A stretch of 64,000 bases of DNA from NCBI GenBank assembly GCA_027596195.1, contig JADGJG010000023.1:1-64000 (forward strand), written 5' to 3'. Under the pieces are notes generated by a model. It was not told the origin of the DNA and ran no database searches. It saw only the letters and a program-made list of their open reading frames with translations. Shown in pieces: positions 17,137 to 28,249 of the stretch (the first letter of the stretch is position 1; each line of letters starts with the position of its first letter). The position numbers and the translations under genes are program-made. The stretch comes from Podochytrium sp. JEL0797. Lineage: Eukaryota > Chytridiomycota > Chytridiomycetes > Chytridiales > Chytriomycetaceae.

Positions 17137-19706
17137 ATGTTTTCGCAGACACACCGACGGGCCACGGGTCTGCCGACGCACCAGCACGACGCGCCAGGCA
17201 GCACATCAGCCATTGACATGCGGGTGCGCGCGTCTTCTTCTTCTTCTTCTTCTTCAAAAGACGACGGCGACTCGAAGAAGCGCAAGCTGCGGCGCGGCCT
17301 CTTTGCGGTGCCTGGCCCAGCCCTGGCGCGCAACTCTGTGCCCCTCGTGGCCGTGCTTCTTCTTGTGCTGGTCGCCTTCGCCGCGGGCCTCGCCGCCTCA
17401 GCCAGGCTCTTTTCCGCCACGCCGAGGTCCCTGCCCGAACCCGCGAGTCCAATGCCGCCGCAGCCGCCTGCCCCGCCTCAACAGCAAGGCGCCGACGAGT
17501 GGCGCCGCAAATACGAAAGTAATCCTGACTTCCTTTGATTCCAACTTCAACTCCCAATTTATTCACCAGTGCTATCAATTTACCAGGCCTCATCGATGCC
17601 GTCGCAAAGTCTCAGCTGCCCGCTCCCACACAAGAGCTTTCCGTCGCTGACCCAGTCCCATCCGCAAAACAGGACGAAAAGTCGCCGAAACAGGAAGTCA
17701 TTGATGCAATCGAAAACAAGGAGAAGGAGAACCAGATGAAGAAGCTGATGGACCAGTCGGGTGACTCGATCGAAGGCGTCAAGCTCAAGGAGTCGACTGA
17801 AAAAATGCCCGTCTTTGGTGGAATGCCCGAAATCGAAACCGTGGCCCAACTGCCTGCCTCGTCCGTTTGGTGCCAGGGCGACACCTTGGCAACACGGTAT
17901 AACGCGACTTGTTTGTGGTTCCAATCGTATCGAAGATGCTGACCCTGTTCAATTGCCTGCCAGAACCTGCAAATTCCGCAACATCTGCTATTCCGAGAAA
18001 TACCAGTGGTTCATTGTCAGAAACAACGCGTCCGACCTGAAGGGCGTGCCGACCCCTGCCCAAATCCTCAACGACGTGCGTCCCGGAGTCGTGGAAATCA
18101 GCACCATCGAAGACCACCCCTACACGGCATGGTCCTACGACCAAGTTTCCCAATTCGCCCCCGAATTCCAAAACCGACGCGTCCGTTACCACACGGACTT
18201 TACCATTCTTTTCAAGAGATTCCACGCCAACAACATCATGCACAGTCTCCACGACGATGTCCTCCCCCTGTTTCACCACATTCGCGAAGTCATTGGCGGG
18301 TTTATGAACGGTTTCAGTCACTTTGAGTTTGACCTCCGGAACCACCGGATCCAGTTTGTGGATGACTATGAAGTGACGGAGACTTTCCGACCGTTTCAGT
18401 ACCTCACGGATCTGCCGATTGGCCGGCTCGCGGACTTGACTGAAGACCCGGACCTCATCACGTGTTTCCGCGACGCGACGGCTGGTGTGCGAAAGCTCAC
18501 GACGTGGTACCAGTACGGATTCAGTGGACCGCAGGGACCCATTGAAAACAAGTTTGTGAATGGGCTTCATGTGAGGATGGTGTCAGACTTTTTCACGTCG
18601 CGGCTCGGGTTGATGACGCAAGATTACTACGGGGAGGCCAACGATCTCATGCTCAACGCTGCCAAAGGGTTGGTCGTGGTCAAAAACGGGGATGAGTTTG
18701 GGACTTCCAAGACGTCTGGGGTTGACTTTGTGGGACCCGATTTGATTATTATCCTCTCGCGCACGCGGAATCGGTTGATTATGAATGAGGACAAGTTGGC
18801 GGAGCATTTAGAGAAGACGTTTAAGCATCAGGTGTTGTTGGTGAGGAATGAGGATCATACGCTTGAGGAGCAGATTATTCTGATGCGGAGAGCGAAAGTG
18901 CTTGTGGCTATGCATGGGAGTATTATGATTATGGGAATGTTTTGCAGGAAGGGGACGGTTATGTTGGAGTTGTATCCGTATGCTGTGCCTTCGGATAATT
19001 ATACGCCGTACCGGACGATGGCGCAACTGAGTGGAATGAATTTGGTGTATCGCGCGTGGGAGGTTTGTGTATTTGTATTTTTTGTGCGTTGTTTGGTATC
19101 AATTCTCATCCTGATTTTTGATTTGATTTTTGGCAGAACAAACATCCCGAAAATTCCGTTTCACACCCCGACTGGCCCGAAGCTCTCGGCGGAATCGCGC
19201 ACCTCTCCCCCGAAGAGCAAAAAACGATCCAAGACACGACCACCGTCCCCTCCCACAAATGCTGCGTCGATCCCTACTGGCTCTTCCGCATCTACCAAGA
19301 CACCACCGTTGACATTCAAGAAATCTCGACCCTCCTCAAGGACGCGTTGCAAGAATCGGCGCGGCTCATGCAAACTTTGGCGAATACGAATCCGATGGAG
19401 GCGATTGATATCCTCCCGCCTGCGATTACGGGGCCCATGTTCAATTGTCTTGGGGAAGGAAGGCCGAAGGACGCGTTGTGGATTCGATGGGCGGAGCCGT
19501 GGAATGGGGCCAAGCCGGATTATTATATCGTGCGATCGAGGATTGATGGGGATGAGTCGGAGGATCCGTTCGTATTGTATCAGGCCAATTCGACGGAATT
19601 GTTTGTGAAGGGGTTTAAGCCGGGGACGGGGGTGATTTTTAGTGTTAAGAGTGTGGTGGGGGGGCAGGAGACGAGTTATGGAGATGAGGCGATTTGCACA
19701 ATCTAG
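17137..19706 (+). CDS. POMGNT2: GT61 glycosyltransferase, POMGNT2 (AGO61)-like
   Basis: Exons 17137-17518, 17587-17914, 17964-19062 and 19137-19706 give 792 residues. The topology is type II: a basic cytosolic tail (KKRKLRRG), one hydrophobic helix (about residues 68-92), and a Pro-rich stem. The catalytic region matches POMGNT2: SVWCQGD, CKFRNICYS, FHANNIMHSLHDDVLPLFH, KLTTWYQYGFSGPQGP, ILSRTRNRLI, VAMHGS, LELYPYAVPSDNYTPYRT and HPENSVSHP, then CCVDPYWLFRIYQDTTVDI. A C-terminal fibronectin-III-like domain ends the protein, as in POMGNT2. The animal enzyme adds beta-1,4-GlcNAc to O-mannose in the ER. The acceptor in this organism is unknown. The intron-2 donor is the least certain junction. 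The gene sits next to a large Ser/Thr-rich surface protein. Confidence 0.88.
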
Positions 19707-19745
19707 TTTTTGATTAACTTTTGGGAGTAAAAATCCATATCCGCT

Positions 19746-19850
19746 TTCCCTGATCAATCCGTCGGTAGCTGTGTGTTCTATGGCGGAATGCTGTCGTCTA
19801 GAATACATTGAATTACTCTCTCTTTAAAGTAAGCCGTTTGTGCTTCCTTC
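19746..19850 (+). pseudogene. Broken copy of the WSC exon of the downstream surface protein
   Basis: TTCCCTGATCAATC, GTAGCTGTGTGT, ATGCTGTCGTCTA and AAGCCGTTTGTGCTT occur here in the same order as in exon 2 of the surface-protein gene (about 20607-20730), with small deletions and substitutions between them. The fragment has no signal-peptide exon and an in-frame stop. It stops at about 19847, where homology to the glycosyltransferase copy soon begins. Confidence 0.7.
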
Positions 19851-19861
19851 CAAACAATTAC

Positions 19862-20256
19862 ACTCCAAACCCAAATCTCGACGCCTTCCTCACGGACACC
19901 TCACGGACGCGTTTGCAAGAATCCGCGCGGCTCATGCAAACCTTGGATACCACGAAACCCGCTCGAGTCGATTGATATTCTCCCGCCTGCTATTACTGGA
20001 CCCATGTTCAATTGTATTGGGGAAGGAAGGCCGAAGGACGCGTTTGTGGATTCGATGGGGGGAGCTGTGGAATGGGCGAAACCGGATTACTATATCGTGC
20101 GGTCGAGGATTGATGGGGATGAGTCGGAAGATCCTGCTTGTATTGTATCAGGCCAATTCGACTGAGTTGTGTGTGAAGGGGTTTAAACCGGACACTGGGG
20201 GTGATTTTTGGTAGGTAAGTTATAAAAGGCGATTTGCGCAATCTAGTTAGTTTTTC
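19862..20256 (+). pseudogene. Broken copy of the 3' end of the POMGNT2-like gene
   Basis: This repeats 19320-19712, the FnIII-coding end of the POMGNT2-like gene, at high identity, including CATGTTCAATTGT, GGGGAAGGAAGGCCGAAGGA and GAGGATTGATGGGGATGAGT and the stop-codon context. Single-base indels shift the frame several times, for example GCGTTTGTGG where the gene has GCGTTGTGG. No complete reading frame remains and nothing upstream of the FnIII region is copied. It is a decayed partial duplicate. Confidence 0.8.
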
Positions 20257-20357: not shown

Positions 20358-23300
20358 ATGACCTTGCGTCATTTGCTGCTTCCGGCCCTCTTTGCGCTAT
20401 TCGCTCCAGCCCGAGCCGCGGCTCAGGCCAATCAAACTGAAATCAGTGTCGACACGCAGACCCAGTTGGGGTATCTCGGTACGGGCGTGATCCCATCTGA
20501 CCCAGTCTTTTCATGAGTGGCGGGGATGTTGACGCGTTTTTTTCTCTGTATTTCAGGCTGCTTCGAAGGAGCTGTTGCGAACCCTGTCTTTAGCGAACAA
20601 TCCATCGGATTCCCTGATCAATCTGTGCGTAGCTGTGTGTCCACGTGCAAGAGCATTTCCATGGAGTATGCTGTCGTCTATAATATATCGAATACTCCTA
20701 TTCACAATCAAGCCGTTTGTGCTTGTGATTCTGGGTGTGCAATGTTTACGGACGTTTTGAATCCCGTCGCGGTGGAGAGTTGAGTTTAAACATCCTCTCT
20801 CTCTCTCTCTCATTGATGTTTTTGGACTGAAATGATATCGAATTATTTGTTATTTAGATGCAAAGTGTGACGAATATTCTCGAACAGTGTATTATTCCGT
20901 TTACGCGACTGGAAGCCAGGCTGGATCTTGCGCTGCAAATATAAGACGGGATCGAGGTGAAGGTGGAGGATCCGGAATGTGGGGAGGTGATGACGGTGGA
21001 GGATCCGGAATTTGGGGTGGTAATCAAGCTGGAGGATCAAGAATGAGTGGGGGTGATGAAGGCGGAGGATCCGGAATGTGGGGGGGTAATCAAGATGGAG
21101 GATCCGAAATGTACGGGGGTAATGAAGGCGGAGGATCCGGAATGAGGGTGCTTGCTCAAGCCCCCGTCTCTATTCCCGCTGATTGCTCAAAACTTTCTAC
21201 AATTTATCCGTCCCTGTGGAGTCAAACGTCCAATTGCTGCACTGCGCCTTCACTTGTTGCGAACGCTCAAGTAGTCTGTTCTGGCGGATATGTGATCACA
21301 TTGTTTGTGCCCCTTTTTTTTGTTTCTTCTCCTCTTTTTGTTCTTTGCTTATATCGATGGAAAAATCCAGGTCCATTTTTCAACAGTCTCCTCCTTTTGG
21401 GGTCACTACAGCGACTATTCCTTCGACGCTTCCCGATTTATCAGCCCTCGCGCATCTTCAAAACATGTTCGTTGCTTCAAACTTTTTTTCTGTCAGTTTA
21501 TGAGTTTTCATATCCGCTAGCACAATGCATTACAACCGCATCACTGGACCGATTCCTACTTCATGGTGCGCATTGACATCGTTGATCAACTTGTAAGCTT
21601 TTTCTTACAAATCATGGCGGAAGCAAAAAGGAAAAAGGCTGATTTCCTTTTTCTATTCTTTGTTTCACAGGGACGTGAGCTTGAACAATTTGACTGGCAC
21701 GATTCCAACTTGCTTAACTCAATTGACTCAGCTTACATCTTTGTAAGTGGTTCCTTCCCATACGCTGAGTTTTTGTTGCACAGAAAGTTGATTCTAAACA
21801 AATTAATCTAGGCAAGTTGGATACAATATTGGCATCACGGGAACACTTCCAGCAGCTCTCTGCACGCTCCCACTCACATACTGGTTTGCTATCCAGCGGG
21901 TTTTGTTTTGTTTAGGTTTATGGAATACTCATAGTTCTTCTCTAATTAGGAACGGAGCGGGGACAAGTATGGGACTCAATCCTGCGCCACCGTATGGAGC
22001 ATTGATTTATGATGGAACGATTACGTCAACGCCAATGAATCGAAACTCGTCCATGTGTTTGGTGGGGGTGGCGGCTCGAATCGCAACAAAGACGTCCTCT
22101 ACTACCACATCCACAACGCTGTCAACCACAACTTCCAAATTAACAAGCACGAGTACCACTTCTTCAACATCCACATCAACTGGAACTTCCACGTCGACAA
22201 CGAGCAGTTCTACGTTGACGAGCGCGTCCACTTCATCATCCACAACACTTGTTCGACCGGATCTCCTCCGGCAGGGTATGGTTATTATTCCTTCAACCAC
22301 GACTACCTCGACTTCTGCAACAACGAGTACTTCCACGTCGTCCACGTCGAGCTCAACGAGCAGTTCTACATCAACGACTTCATCGTCAACAACGGTAACC
22401 AGTACTTCATCTACGAGCACTTCCAGTACGACTTCGACGAGTACATCAACTTCGTCGTCCACAACTGCCACCAGCACTTCATCGACGAGCTCGACAACAA
22501 GCTCGTCCACGTCTAGCTCAACGAGTAGTTCTACATCGACGACTTCTTCGTCTACAACAGCAACCAGCACTTCATCTACGAGCACTTCCAGAACCTCGAC
22601 AACTTCGTCGTCCACAACTGCCACCAGCACTTCATCGACTAGTTCAACAACAAGCTCATCAACGTCTAGCTCAACGAGTAGTTCTACATCGACGACTTCC
22701 TCGTCAACAACGGCGACCAGCACTTCATCGACTAGCTCAACAACAAGCTCATCCACTTCGACTTGCTCTACATCAACGACTTCATCGTCAACAACGGCGA
22801 CCAGCACTTCATCTACCACATCAACTTTGTCGACCACCACGGCCACCAGCACTTCATCGACTAGCTCAACAACAAGCTCCTCCACGTCTAGCTCAACGAG
22901 CAGCTCTACATCGACTACTTCGTCTTCTACAACAGGTACTAGCACTTCATCCACAAGCACTTCCAGTACGACCTCGACCAGTACATCGACTTTGTCAACC
23001 ACAACGGGCACCAGCACCTCTTCAACAAGCTCGACAACAAGCTCATCCATGTCTAGCTCAACGAGCAGTTCTACATCGACTACTTCGTCGTCTACATCAG
23101 CTACTAGTACTTCATCCACAAGTACTTCTAGCACCACATCAACGAGCACGTCCACTTTGTCAACCACAACGGCCACTAGCACTTCATCTACCAGCTCGAC
23201 AACAAGCTCGTCCACAAGCTCATCCACGTCTAGCTCAACGAGCAGCTCTACATCGACTACTTCGTCTTCTACAACGGCAACCAGCACTTCATCCACTGGC

Positions 23301-26300
23301 ACCTCGACTTCTGCAACAACGAGTACTTCAACGGCGACCACATCTTCAACGACGGCAGAATCCACCACCACATCAACTTCGTCGTCCATAACGGCCACCA
23401 GCACCTCTTCAACGAGCTCAACAACAAGCATGTCTACCTCCACAAGCAGCTCTACATCTATAACTGCCTTGTCAACAACGACAACCAGCACTTCATCGAC
23501 TAGCACCTCGACGGCGACCACATCTTCAACGACGACGGAATCCACCACTACATCAACTTCGTCATCCATAACAGCCACCAGCACCTCTTCAACAAGCTCA
23601 ACGAGCTCGTCCACATCTACCTCAAGTAGCAGCTCTTCATCGACTACATCATCCACAACAGCGCTTGTTCGACCGGCTCTACAACAAGCTATGGTGATCA
23701 TCTCTTCAACCACGAGCACTTCCACTTCTGACACGACGAGCTCTTCCACGTCGACCTCCTCTTCAGCCACAACGGAATCCACCACATCAACCTCGTCGTC
23801 TTCAACAGAATCCAACACCGCATCAACTTCGTCGTCCACAATGGCCACCAGCGCGTCCACGTTTACCTCAACGAGCAGCTCGACATCCCCAACGACAACA
23901 AACCACCTTTCCCCACAACTTGTTAACGTATTGATACCAGAATTTGCTGCGATCATAGCTATGCATTCTACAACTCGATCAACTCAAACTGGAATTATGG
24001 CGTCGTTTGCATCTTTCTTGGGATTTACGCGATCGACTGAGTCAACTACATCCAGTTCATCAGTTCCGACATTTTCAGCCATTCAAGCAGGTCAGCTGCA
24101 TAAATTCCAGCCCAAAATATGTATATGAAGCTTAATTTTAACTCTCCATAGTAATACCAGTGACATTGAGTTCGGCTTCGGTGAATACAGTGCCAACTCA
24201 ATCCCCAGCTGTCCAAACTAACGTTCTCAAGTCCGCTATGGTGGCCCCAGCTTTCACACAAATCAGCTCAACTTCCACTGGTAGCGTTTCATTCAAAAAT
24301 GCTAGCGCAGGTCCAACGCCACCAGCGCAAACATCATCTCCTTCTAACCAACCCCTCAATGTCGTTCAACATGCAGTTTCGAGCGTCACTGTTGGGGGCC
24401 AAAATTCAATTGGTGGAACCAGTGAATCGCCTCCGGCAGCTCACCCACACAGTTCGACATCTAGTTTTGGAGCGAAGATTTCTGGGGTAGCTTTCAAATC
24501 AGCCAGCTCAAGTCAAATACAATCTTCTTCCACGACATTCCAATCTGCGGTTTCCCATGCCGGTTTTCTGAACGCTGCCGTTTCTCCACCTTCTGCTGGA
24601 GGAATCAGCCTCTCATCCGTGACAGTGAATTCCGCTGGCTCCCCTGTCAATGCAGGAGCGAGCACTGGTCGTGTATCTGTCAAATCTAGTAGCGCAAGTC
24701 TGGCTTCCACAGTCAAAGCACCATCTGCGTCTGTTCAACCGCTCAACGTCGTCCAAGCTGCTGTTTCTATCGCCACTGTGGCGGGGCATTCCTCCATTGG
24801 TGGAACGATTGTCTCATCTGCGGCGACTAAGCCAAGTAGCTCGCCATTGGGTGCTGGTGCGAACATTGCTGGAATAGTTTCCAAATCAACGACCTCGAGT
24901 CAAATACCAACGTCTACAGCTGCTTCCACGGCATTCCAATCTGTGGCCGCCCATGCCAATGTTCTGAAGGCCGTGGTGTTGAGTGGATCGGTTCCTACAC
25001 CGACTTCGACTGGTACAATTTTTCTTTTCCTCCTTTTTATTGATTTAAAATTGAAGGTATCTCTTCTATCTGTATTAGCATTGAAAGTGACCGCCACCAC
25101 AATTAACGCGGCTCTGGGTGCTGCATCTTCTCCAGTATCTGTCAATCTACCTTATTGTATCTTGAGCAGCCAAATCACGCAGAACTGCACGTGTGGTACC
25201 ATGATTTGCATGCCCGGAATGTTCTGCGGAAACTCTGTTTGCTCGAGTTCATCCGTATATTCGGCGAATGGTTTGAAGATACTTTTTGTTGGTTGCAAGC
25301 TTAATTGTTTTTTGTAGGTTTGACGAAATCTGTGTGGACGTCACTGCGATCGAGCCCCAACATTCTTCAAATCGCTTCCATCGCGAATCAGAACGGAATA
25401 CTCGAATCCTTCCTTATTGATGCAAATAATGTGCTTTGGCATGCTGTCCAAACCGGCAACACATTTTTCAGGTACAGGTTGGATCAGGTACCAGCCCAAG
25501 CTGTTGCGGTGGGCATGAATTTAGATGGTCGCTTGGAAGTGTTTGTCATTGGAATCAACGACAACTTGCTTTACCATGCATTCCAGAGTTCTCCGGGGTC
25601 TTCTTATGGATCCTTCAGTAATTTGGGCGGAAGCGATGCGCAAACTGTGAATGTTGTCAATAACGCAGATGGGCGACTTGAAGTGATTGTCAGCGATTCA
25701 TATGGTGATTTGAGCGTCACTTTTCAAACGAGTGTGAATGGGGGAGTTGGGAATAGCCAGTGGAGTGGTTGGACAGCAATTGCGCCCAATATGATCCATG
25801 GATTCTCGTCTCAGATCCAATTGGAGTCTATTTCCTCTATTGTGTATCAGGGCGGGCGCTATTTCGTGTTTGGCCTCGGCGTGAATGAGGCTCTCGTAAA
25901 GCAAGTCATCTACTTTGGCCAATCCGCACCCAATACGGTGACGGTAGGGCAGATGGCTGAACTGCCGGTCATGAAACATGGATTCAGTTACATATCAGTT
26001 GCAACAACCTCTAGCCGTACACTGATTGTGTTTGCCGTTGATTTGATCGGAACTGTGTGGTTTTCTCAAGAACAAACTATTGGGAAATTGGATTGGTCCA
26101 GTTGGGAGCCAACTGGTCTTACGAAAGTCAGTTACATTACTGTAGGCTTTGGTGATTCTGGATTTGCAAGCTTGATTGGGATTTCCAGCATTGACAACAG
26201 TGTGTTCTATAGTCTGATTCAACCAAATTCGACTGGTGGTGTTATCACTACCACGGTTAAAATTGGAGGAGGATATCCTATCGCCTCCATTACCGCTTCC

Positions 26301-28249
26301 CGAGCAAGTGATGGCACACTAGTGTTATTCGGACTGTCCACGTCTGATGGAAGCGTAAGCTTCTACTCTATTGGGTCACAGCTTGCAGCGTGCACCACCA
26401 ATCCCATCTCTGTTTCAAGCGGATGTAATTGTTCAGGAAGCAGTTGTCCATTTGGATCTTCTTGCTCCGGAAGTGGATGTCTTCCCGCACCCAAGATTGC
26501 AGCAATGAATGCAGCAGTGAAGAACGTTTCCACCAGTTCCAATGTTGCTGCTAATCCTATTGCGGCAATTGTGCAGAGTATTTCAGTTAAATCGGCAGCA
26601 ATGATTACTTCGGCGAAGGCATTGGTGACATCCATCATTCCTCCTCCGGTGATACCTGTCGGAAAGTCGGCTTCTTCTGCTGTGGTTTCTGCGTCCAAAA
26701 CAACAAGTGCAGTTTTGAATCCACCAGTGGCGCAGGTCAATATTGCAATTCCTCCACCTCTGGCGTCGAGTCTGAAGTTGGCTTCTTCTGCCGTGGTTTC
26801 TGTTGCCAAAGCAACGAGCTCGTCCTTGAATCCACAAGTGCTGCAGGTCAATAATGCAATTCCTGCACCTCCGACGCCGACTAGTCTAACGTCGGCTTCT
26901 TCTGCTATGGTTTCTGTTGCCAAAGCAACGAGCTCGTCCTTGAATCCACCAGTCATGCAAGCCAATGTTGTCATTCCACCTGTCACAGCAACTAGCTCAC
27001 AGCTATCTGTTTCCGCGAAGGCACCTGCTGTTGCGGGAAAAGTTGTTGCTCCCGCCGCGAGTTCCGTCACGACCACCACATCAACCAAGACCAGTGGGAC
27101 GTCGTCCACTAGTACCACCACATCAACCAAGACGAGTGCCACTTCCACCACATCCACTAAGACAACTGGGACTTCGTCAACGAGTACCACCACCTCAACC
27201 AAGACGAGTGTCACTTCCTCGACTAGTACCACCACATCTTCATCTGCCGCGGTTTCTGCTGCCAAGGCAACGAGTTCATCGTTGAATCAACCAGTGATGC
27301 ACGCCAATGTTGTCATTCCATCTGTTGCAGCAACTAGCGCACAGCTATCTGTTTCCGCGAAGGCACCTGCTGTTGCGGGAAAAGTTGTTGCTCCCGCCGC
27401 GAGTTCCTTCACGACCACCACATCAACCAAGACCAGTGGGACGTCGTCCACTAGTACCATCACATCAACCAAGACGAGTGCCACTTCCACCACATCCACC
27501 AAGACAACTGGGACTTCGTCAACTAGTACCACAACGTTAACATACAGCACGAACACGAGTACAACGACAACCAAGCCAAAGGCAGCCGCAGCCCACGTAT
27601 TGTTTAATCTAGTGGAAACCTCTACAACTAGCACCAGTACCACGACATCCAAAACGACGAGCACGACGAGTACAACATCGAGTACAAGTACATCTACGTC
27701 CACGTCTAAAACCACGAGTACATCGAGTACGTCGAGTACCACGTCCACATCCAAAACCACGAGTACGTCGAGTACAAGTACGTCTACGTCCACTTCCAAA
27801 ACCACGACTACGTCGAGTACGTCGAGTACCACGTCCACCTCGAGCACAACAAAGACTTCCAGCACAAGCACTTCAACGCTCACAACAAAGACATCAACAA
27901 CGTCCACCAGTATGACCACGACCACCACAACCACCACACCGGTCGCTGTACAAGCCGGAGTTTGTCGTGCTCCTTGGTCCGCTGCCAAAAACTACCTGGC
28001 ATTATTCACGGGAGTTAGTTATGGAGGATATAACTGGCAAAACACGCAACCAATCAACGCCTCACCGCAGCCGCCAAGTCTAGGGGGTAGCAGTGGAGGA
28101 AGATGTAAATATATTTGTTTGTAACTTGACTTCACTTTCTGACCTCTTATTTTTTGATAGGGGTGCGATTGAATAGTTGTGTGCCTGCGCAAGGTGGACC
28201 TGCGGCAGCAGCAGCAGCAGCGTTTGCAGCGGGTGGATTCGGTCGATGA
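20358..28249 (+). CDS. Giant WSC/LRR/mucin/lectin-propeller surface glycoprotein, 2,389 aa
   Basis: Twelve exons: 20358-20478, 20557-20778, 20858-21302, 21371-21466, 21521-21592, 21671-21742, 21812-21883, 21950-24090, 24152-25012, 25079-25270, 25318-28104 and 28161-28249. All phases close. Order of parts: signal peptide (MTLRHLLLPALFALF); WSC domain (LGYLGCFEGA to about 130); 11-residue Gly repeats (about 150-210); four leucine-rich repeats (about 260-370, e.g. NRITGPIPTSWCALTSL); Ser/Thr tract (about 410-1030); two 125-residue repeats (to 1370); Cys block; seven-bladed lectin-like propeller (about 1430-1790, with DGRLEVFVIG, LLYHAFQ); matching Cys block; second Ser/Thr tract; and a tail like a CBM5/12 chitin-binding module (about 2310-2370). 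No transmembrane helix or GPI signal is visible. WSC and the tail suggest wall or chitin binding, and the propeller suggests glycan binding: probably an adhesin. The exact product is undescribed to me. Confidence 0.8.
20962..21147 (+). repeat. 33-bp tandem repeat, five and a half units
   Basis: Units of 33 bp encode 11-residue variants GGSGMWGGDDG, GGSGIWGGNQA, GGSRMSGGDEG, GGSGMWGGNQD and GGSEMYGGNEG. They form a Gly-rich linker between the WSC domain and the LRRs. Unit number is likely to vary between strains. Confidence 0.9.
22086..23930 (+). repeat. Ser/Thr mucin-like repeat tract 1
   Basis: About 600 codons are almost all Ser and Thr, in short motifs such as TSSSTTATSTSSTS that recur at irregular spacing. 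The tract is a probable substrate for dense O-glycosylation, keeping the lectin part away from the wall. Its codons use both TCG/ACG and TCC/ACC, which creates a long meaningless open frame on the opposite strand. Confidence 0.9.
26900..27583 (+). repeat. 342-bp in-frame tandem duplication inside the surface-protein gene
   Basis: The segment starting at 26900 is repeated from 27242 with few changes. Both copies encode KATSSSLN-PVM-ANVVIP, then SAKAPAVAGKVVAPAASS, then a Thr-rich run (TSTKTSGTSSTST). The second copy is shortened at its end. Earlier, three units of about 115 bp (26668, 26782, 26899) show an older round of the same process. Confidence 0.85.

What the first reader, a model, noticed from the sequence alone, without database searches (positions are those of the whole stretch)
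20358..28249. A new-looking domain combination: WSC + LRR + mucin + seven-bladed lectin-like propeller + chitin-binding-like tail
All 12 exons join in frame into 2,389 residues. The propeller has seven recognisable blade motifs (LESFLIDANNVLWHAVQ, LEVFVIGINDNLLYHAFQ, LEVIVSDSYGDLSVTFQ, YFVFGLGVNEALVKQ, LIVFAVDLIGTVWFSQE, LIGISSIDNSVFYSLIQ, LVLFGLSTSDGSVSF), like PLL/tachylectin-type lectins. With WSC and a CBM5/12-like end it could tether chitin at one side and host or algal glycans at the other. I do not know a described protein with this order.
Basis: partly seen in the sequence, partly recalled or inferred. Interest (0 to 1): 0.8.

Follow-up and report, generated by a model that had tools for sequence, protein, structure and literature searches.

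The report
Fungal mucin protein with bacterial-type propeller
A swimming-spore fungus appears to encode one giant secreted, sugar-coated protein that carries, between two long stalks, a seven-bladed propeller of a kind known mainly from bacterial sugar-binding proteins; its parts are familiar, their combination looks new, and what it binds is not known.

The parts
20358..20420 (+). Putative signal peptide, residues 1-21 (by eye: Leu/Ala-rich core, AxA-type end; no predictor run; best 19-residue hydropathy 1.46)
20469..20907 (+). Divergent WSC/PAN-like domain, residues 38-131 (two introns inside)
   Evidence: Pfam WSC 17.3 bits, below cut-off 27.8; Cys 42-67-71-95-97-101-118, no CGG
20958..21148 (+). 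Gly-rich tandem repeat, 33-bp unit x 5.8 (11 residues)
21184..22079 (+). LRR domain with N-terminal Cys cap, residues 224-410; three successive 72-bp phase-2 exons (5, 6, 7)
   Evidence: LRR_1 1.5e-6; exons
22080..24090 (+). Mucin-like stalk 1, residues 411-1080; 83% Ser/Thr over 411-1040; 153-165-bp DNA repeats
24152..25012 (+). Ser/Thr/Ala linker, exon 9 (symmetric 1-1, 861 bp)
25156..25242 (+). Six-cysteine module 1, residues 1394-1422 (steps 10,2,5,6,5), in symmetric exon 10
25320..26378 (+). PLL-type seven-bladed beta-propeller, residues 1433-1785; no internal intron; N-terminal VWTSL segment probably closes the last blade (inferred)
26391..26480 (+). Six-cysteine module 2, residues 1790-1819 (steps 11,2,5,6,5)
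26514..27953 (+). Mucin-like stalk 2, residues 1831-2310 (53% Ser/Thr), with a 342-bp internal duplication, 94% matches
27957..28180 (+). CBM5/12-like C-terminal module, residues 2312-2367, interrupted by intron 28105-28160; lacks the Trp-Trp pair
28161..28249 (+). Last exon; Ala/Gly-rich end, stop at 28247-28249; no hydrophobic anchor in a simple scan

Best explanation
One gene of a zoosporic, chitin-walled fungus makes a very large secreted, probably heavily O-glycosylated modular protein. The WSC-like, LRR and CBM5/12-like ends most likely hold or orient it in the fungal wall or extracellular coat, the two Ser/Thr stalks act as spacers, and the PLL-type propeller, bracketed by two six-cysteine modules, is the displayed binding head. 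Shown: the exon model's coherence, the propeller fold, the module order, no anchor in a simple hydropathy scan. Inferred: secretion, glycosylation, surface location, and that the propeller still binds a glycan; if it does, its pockets are altered (Trp replaced by Phe/Tyr or lost), so the ligand probably differs from the fucose or galactose of bacterial PLLs.
Against: No transcript, localisation or binding data. Of 25 alignment columns that are Trp in at least 10 of 19 relatives, this protein has Trp in 5, Phe/Tyr in 7 and something else or a gap in 13. WSC and CBM5/12 ends fall below Pfam cut-offs and lack signature residues. The putative signal peptide was called by eye and stays under 1.5 in the hydropathy scan (1.46). 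Ser/Thr-rich length alone is common in fungal surface proteins (recalled).
Confidence: 0.5

Rival explanations
1. Self-directed wall protein: the propeller and ends bind the fungus's own wall polysaccharides and mucin sugars, cross-linking the coat; no host is involved.
For: Genome with many WSC-type domains and chitin-synthase-type genes; a PLL was reported to recognise chitin oligosaccharides (stated in PMC12203525, passage read).
Against: Chitin-binding Trp pair absent in the tail; no direct evidence on ligand.
Confidence: 0.25
2. Defence lectin: the propeller recognises bacteria or grazers, as proposed for tectonin propellers of mushrooms.
For: PLL-type lectins bind O-methylated sugars (PMC6943638, passages); the mushroom tectonin Lb-Tec2 is proposed to serve pathogen recognition (PMC12203525, passage).
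Against: Bacterial PLL pocket residues mostly lost; the Pfam scans of 20 neighbouring open frames show nothing that suggests defence; PMC12203525 itself thinks that role unlikely for PLLs.
Confidence: 0.1
3. Propeller is a degenerate scaffold without sugar binding; the gene is drifting, like the broken C632 copy and the decayed WSC fragment upstream.
For: Few Trp (7 against 14-26 in 19 of 19 relatives); second propeller copy in three frames and without a match to the last blades; decayed fragment at 19746-19845.
Against: The 2,787-bp exon stays open and its frame is the best of six by codon usage; Trp replaced by Phe/Tyr at all four such columns of blade 2; model confident.
Confidence: 0.15
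4. Two or three separate genes wrongly joined (WSC-LRR-mucin; linker; propeller-mucin-tail).
For: Several weak donors (GTTTGT, GTTCGT, GTTTGC, GTTTGA); codon usage does not favour the used frame in 5 of 12 exons; no RNA.
Against: All 11 junctions are GT-AG and in frame; introns are AT-richer; the first ATG of the exon 9 frame is not followed by a signal-like stretch and that of the exon 11 frame lies inside the propeller.
Confidence: 0.12

Closest known systems
PLL/PHL family of seven-bladed propeller lectins (Photorhabdus; PropLec7A, DUF346)
   Different: The solved ones are stand-alone bacterial lectins of about 370 residues; here one domain of a 2,389-residue fungal protein, most pocket Trp lost
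Bacterial multidomain PLL-like proteins (PF26607 with M10, C1A, GH25, astacin-type and other domains)
   Same: PLL-like propeller fused to other domains
   Different: I saw no WSC, LRR or CBM5/12 among the precomputed Pfam domains of the listed rows
WSC + CBM5/12 open frames of the same genome (C24, C7, C87)
   Same: WSC and CBM5/12 in one reading frame
   Different: No propeller match there; their WSC domains pass the Pfam cut-off; CBM5/12 passes on C24 (27.4 bits) and falls just short on C87 and C7 (25.6, 25.5; cut-off 26.2)
C470 open frames of the same genome
   Same: Two CBM5/12-like domains of the same Trp-poor type, Ser/Thr linkers, similar Cys stretch
   Different: No propeller match there; not shown to be one gene

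Membership tests
PLL-type propeller (fold and homology) | Seven-bladed beta-propeller homologous to PLL/PHL | tested here: met
PLL lectin (function) | Two-Trp fucose pockets and Arg/Glu/Gln/Trp galactose pockets between blades (residues from PMC5584973, passages) | tested here: not met
   Trp kept in 5 of 25 columns; RLE Arg in 3 of 7, Glu in 3 of 7, Gln in 5 of 7. Column-to-pocket mapping is my inference from the motif
PLL lectin (function) | Binds fucose or O-methylated sugars | not testable with these tools
   Needs glycan array
WSC (PF01822) | Score over Pfam cut-off 27.8 | tested here: not met
   17.3 and 17.6 bits
WSC (PF01822) | Eight Cys incl. C-x3-C and C-x-C core, and CGG (PMC9024836, passages) | tested here: not met
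   First Cys, C-x3-C and C-x-C present; later Cys step 4, 17, 21 instead of 15, 4, 8; no CGG
CBM5/12 (PF02839) | Pfam match over cut-off 26.2 | tested here: not met
   No hit for the tail. Its C470 relatives reach 29.2 bits only as a 122-residue piece with both domains; the better one alone scored 22.1 in the genome search
CBM5/12 (PF02839) | Homology to accepted members | tested here: inconclusive
   Tail to C470 E 4.9e-6 within the genome; 3-row tail group to 7 canonical rows probability 86.7; tail alone to that profile 2.8; PDB: nothing for the tail alone at E <= 10, SgChiC domain 2d49 at E 0.11 for the group
CBM5/12 (PF02839) | Surface Trp pair that binds carbohydrate (SgChiC; PMC5328894, passages) | tested here: not met
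   Trp-Trp in 7 of 7 canonical rows, chosen from 28 matches; absent in 3 of 3 rows of the tail group
LRR (PF00560) | Score over cut-off 20.6 | tested here: met
   27.6 bits, 2 stretches
Mucin-like surface protein | Long Ser/Thr-rich stretches | tested here: met
   83% over 630 and 53% over 480 residues
Anchored fungal adhesin | GPI or transmembrane anchor | tested here: not met
   No C-terminal hydrophobic segment in a simple hydropathy scan; no dedicated predictor was available

The most novel reading that the evidence does not exclude
A zoosporic fungus captured a bacterial PLL-type propeller and built it, between duplicated cysteine modules and on symmetric phase-1 exons, into a giant mucin-like coat protein by animal-style exon shuffling; the remodelled pockets now recognise a new ligand used in attachment of the swimming spore. 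This would be the first PLL-type propeller from such a fungus.
Probability: 0.25. Interest if true: 0.65.

Novelty: new variant of a known kind. Interest (0 to 1): 0.42.

Why it matters
How chytrid zoospores recognise and stick to surfaces is poorly known in molecular terms (recalled). A PLL-type propeller displayed on mucin stalks is a concrete candidate head group, and the 353-residue domain is small, encoded in one exon and of a fold solved many times. It also extends the PLL family: a 2023 survey of fungal fucose proteins found DUF346/PLL homologues in fungi, but for Chytridiomycota listed only Lectin_legB among lectins (PMC10481521, passages). Symmetric exons around the modules make it a possible case of exon shuffling in a fungus.

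Tried and rejected
Same-architecture relatives: three protein searches (full length with propeller region, 21 hits; 934-residue exon with propeller region, 318 hits, 120 listed; propeller alone, 295 hits, 120 listed). Organism names appear for 2 of 21, 13 of 120 and 10 of 120 rows, all bacterial; the other rows bear none, so fungal members cannot be excluded. The source protein itself was not found, so the database may hold few proteins of such fungi; absence of relatives is weak evidence. In some searches only the 7,981 and 7,994 candidates sharing most words were scored.

Pfam and NCBIfam did not call the propeller over a cut-off (FG-GAP_3 E 0.49; NF052348 31.6 bits, cut-off 200, and NF052350 27.4, cut-off 350). 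DUF346 gave nothing at this locus in the own genome (2 sub-threshold matches elsewhere at E <= 1). PF26607, the precomputed label on the listed hits, is not in the library here.

Tachylectin membership: I saw no such entry among the rows shown; the absence is told here only.

Species: no paper matched assembly size and contig number (0 papers). Literature for the combination; I saw listings and abstract starts only, except for papers whose passages I read.

The similarity score of the two cysteine modules (42) is not beyond composition-matched shuffles (mean 29.9, maximum 51 of 1000); the case for them rests on spacing only. The codon scoring printed is withdrawn: two of its six training pieces were read out of frame; one search repeats it correctly. 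Horizontal transfer from bacteria was not tested by a tree. The chitin-synthase family model also passes its cut-off in 4 of 14 control genomes, bacteria among them, so only its strong matches (best E 3.3e-163) count; its 42 matches are exon pieces, not genes.

Full report
What is there. Introns are AT-richer than exons (0.26-0.50 against 0.42-0.61 G+C); 8 of 11 would introduce a stop if kept. Introns 3, 7 and 9 would not, so some alternative forms remain possible. Codon usage ranks the used frame best of six in 7 of 12 exons, among them exon 11 with the propeller, but not in exons 3, 6, 8, 10 and 12, of which 3 and 8 are largely repeats. Order: signal-peptide-like start; WSC-like domain; 11-residue Gly-rich repeats; LRR domain, with three successive 72-bp exons in the same phase; a stalk with 83% Ser/Thr over 630 residues; a Ser/Thr/Ala linker; a six-cysteine module; the propeller; a second six-cysteine module; a second stalk with 53% Ser/Thr; a CBM5/12-like tail; an Ala/Gly-rich end without hydrophobic anchor in a simple scan.

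What the propeller probably lost or changed. In PHL, fucose sits against two Trp of one blade and galactose against an Arg, Glu, Gln and Trp set of neighbouring blades (PMC5584973, passages). In my alignment 25 columns are Trp in at least 10 of 19 relatives; this protein keeps Trp in 5, has Phe/Tyr in 7 and other residues or gaps in 13. It has 7 Trp in the span against 14-26 in the 19 relatives, but more Phe/Tyr (8.9% against 2.7-6.5%). Of the seven RLE-type Arg and Glu columns it keeps three each, in the first four blades. So 'PLL-like propeller' is safe, 'PLL lectin' is not.

The ends. The N-terminal domain has the GCF start and the C-x3-C and C-x-C core of WSC/PAN domains but scores 17.3 bits against a cut-off of 27.8 and lacks CGG. 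The tail is not called by Pfam. It matches, inside the genome, a pair of domains on C470 (E 4.9e-6). That pair together scores 29.2 bits with PF02839 (cut-off 26.2), but its better domain alone scored 22.1 in the genome search. The three-row tail group aligns to seven canonical CBM5/12 rows, chosen from 28 matches, with probability 86.7; the tail alone does not (2.8). The three rows lack the Trp-Trp pair that is invariant in the seven and that functions in carbohydrate binding in SgChiC (PMC5328894, passages). Chitin binding is thus doubtful, and even membership rests on the group, not on the tail.

Symmetry of parts. The two six-cysteine modules step 10,2,5,6,5 and 11,2,5,6,5 and are the only matches to that pattern in the protein; their sequence score alone is not significant. 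Eight of 10 internal exons are multiples of three (binomial P 0.0034 for one third each; the three 72-bp LRR exons are not independent, so this overstates it). The WSC-like core, linker, first cysteine module and propeller exon are all phase 1-1, which would ease exon shuffling.

Setting. The genome (24.4 Mb, 995 contigs, unnamed) has strong chitin-synthase matches (best E 3.3e-163; 42 exon-level matches; 4 of 14 control genomes also pass the cut-off, so weak matches mean little), IFT57 over its cut-off on C80 (no control over it), and in this window a HYDIN/CFA65-like frame (29.2 bits, cut-off 25.5) and a katanin con80 domain. With 68 WSC matches, 64 over cut-off, this indicates a flagellated, chitinous fungus, most likely a chytrid (inferred). 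WSC and CBM5/12 share one reading frame on C24, C7 and C87, so that part of the combination is not new here. A second PLL-like propeller on C632 (34% identity over 139 residues) is read in three frames, with gaps of 43 and 31 nt between the pieces, shorter than any intron of this gene, and shows no match to the last blades; it looks broken or misassembled.

Mechanism. I think it a secreted, stalked coat or matrix protein with the propeller as binding head (0.5). Secretion, glycosylation, location and ligand are inferred. Rivals: self-directed wall cross-linker (0.25), degenerate scaffold (0.15), wrongly joined genes (0.12), defence lectin (0.1); these overlap, so they need not add up to one.

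Novelty. No listed hit of three protein searches shares the architecture, and no title or abstract start listed describes it. A 2023 survey of fungal fucose proteins reports PLL/DUF346 homologues in fungi but only Lectin_legB for Chytridiomycota (PMC10481521, passages). Verdict: real, a new combination of known domains, and a new variant of the PLL kind; binding function open.

Noticed in passing
window 19334-20248: Tandem duplicate of the 3' part of the upstream GT61-like gene: 87.6% identity over 322 aligned bases with 7 gap positions, about 567 bp downstream; the second copy is spread over two frames.
   Followed up: partly
window 19746-19845: Decayed copy of part of the WSC-like exon lies between the two GT61 ends (90% over 31 and 83% over 59 bases), so the 5' part of this gene was probably once duplicated together with its neighbour's end.
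   Followed up: partly
L040 (G000 C632:8500-12500), minus strand: Second PLL-like propeller of the genome, in three frames without room for introns of the size seen here and without a match to the last blades; described only.
   Followed up: partly
L006/L039 (G000 C470): Neighbouring open frames with two Trp-poor CBM5/12-like domains, Ser/Thr linkers and a six-cysteine stretch of similar steps (9,2,6,6,6).
   Followed up: partly
window 25013-25078 and 21884-21949: Introns 9 and 7 are multiples of three without in-frame stops; kept, they would add 22-residue segments rich in hydrophobic residues.
   Followed up: no
window 26909-27532 and 20958-21148: Internal tandem duplications (342-bp unit, 94% matches; 33-bp unit x 5.8), suggesting length variation between strains.
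   Followed up: no
G000: Very many LRR matches (222 at E <= 0.1 with this LRR domain as query, this locus's own pieces included).
   Followed up: no
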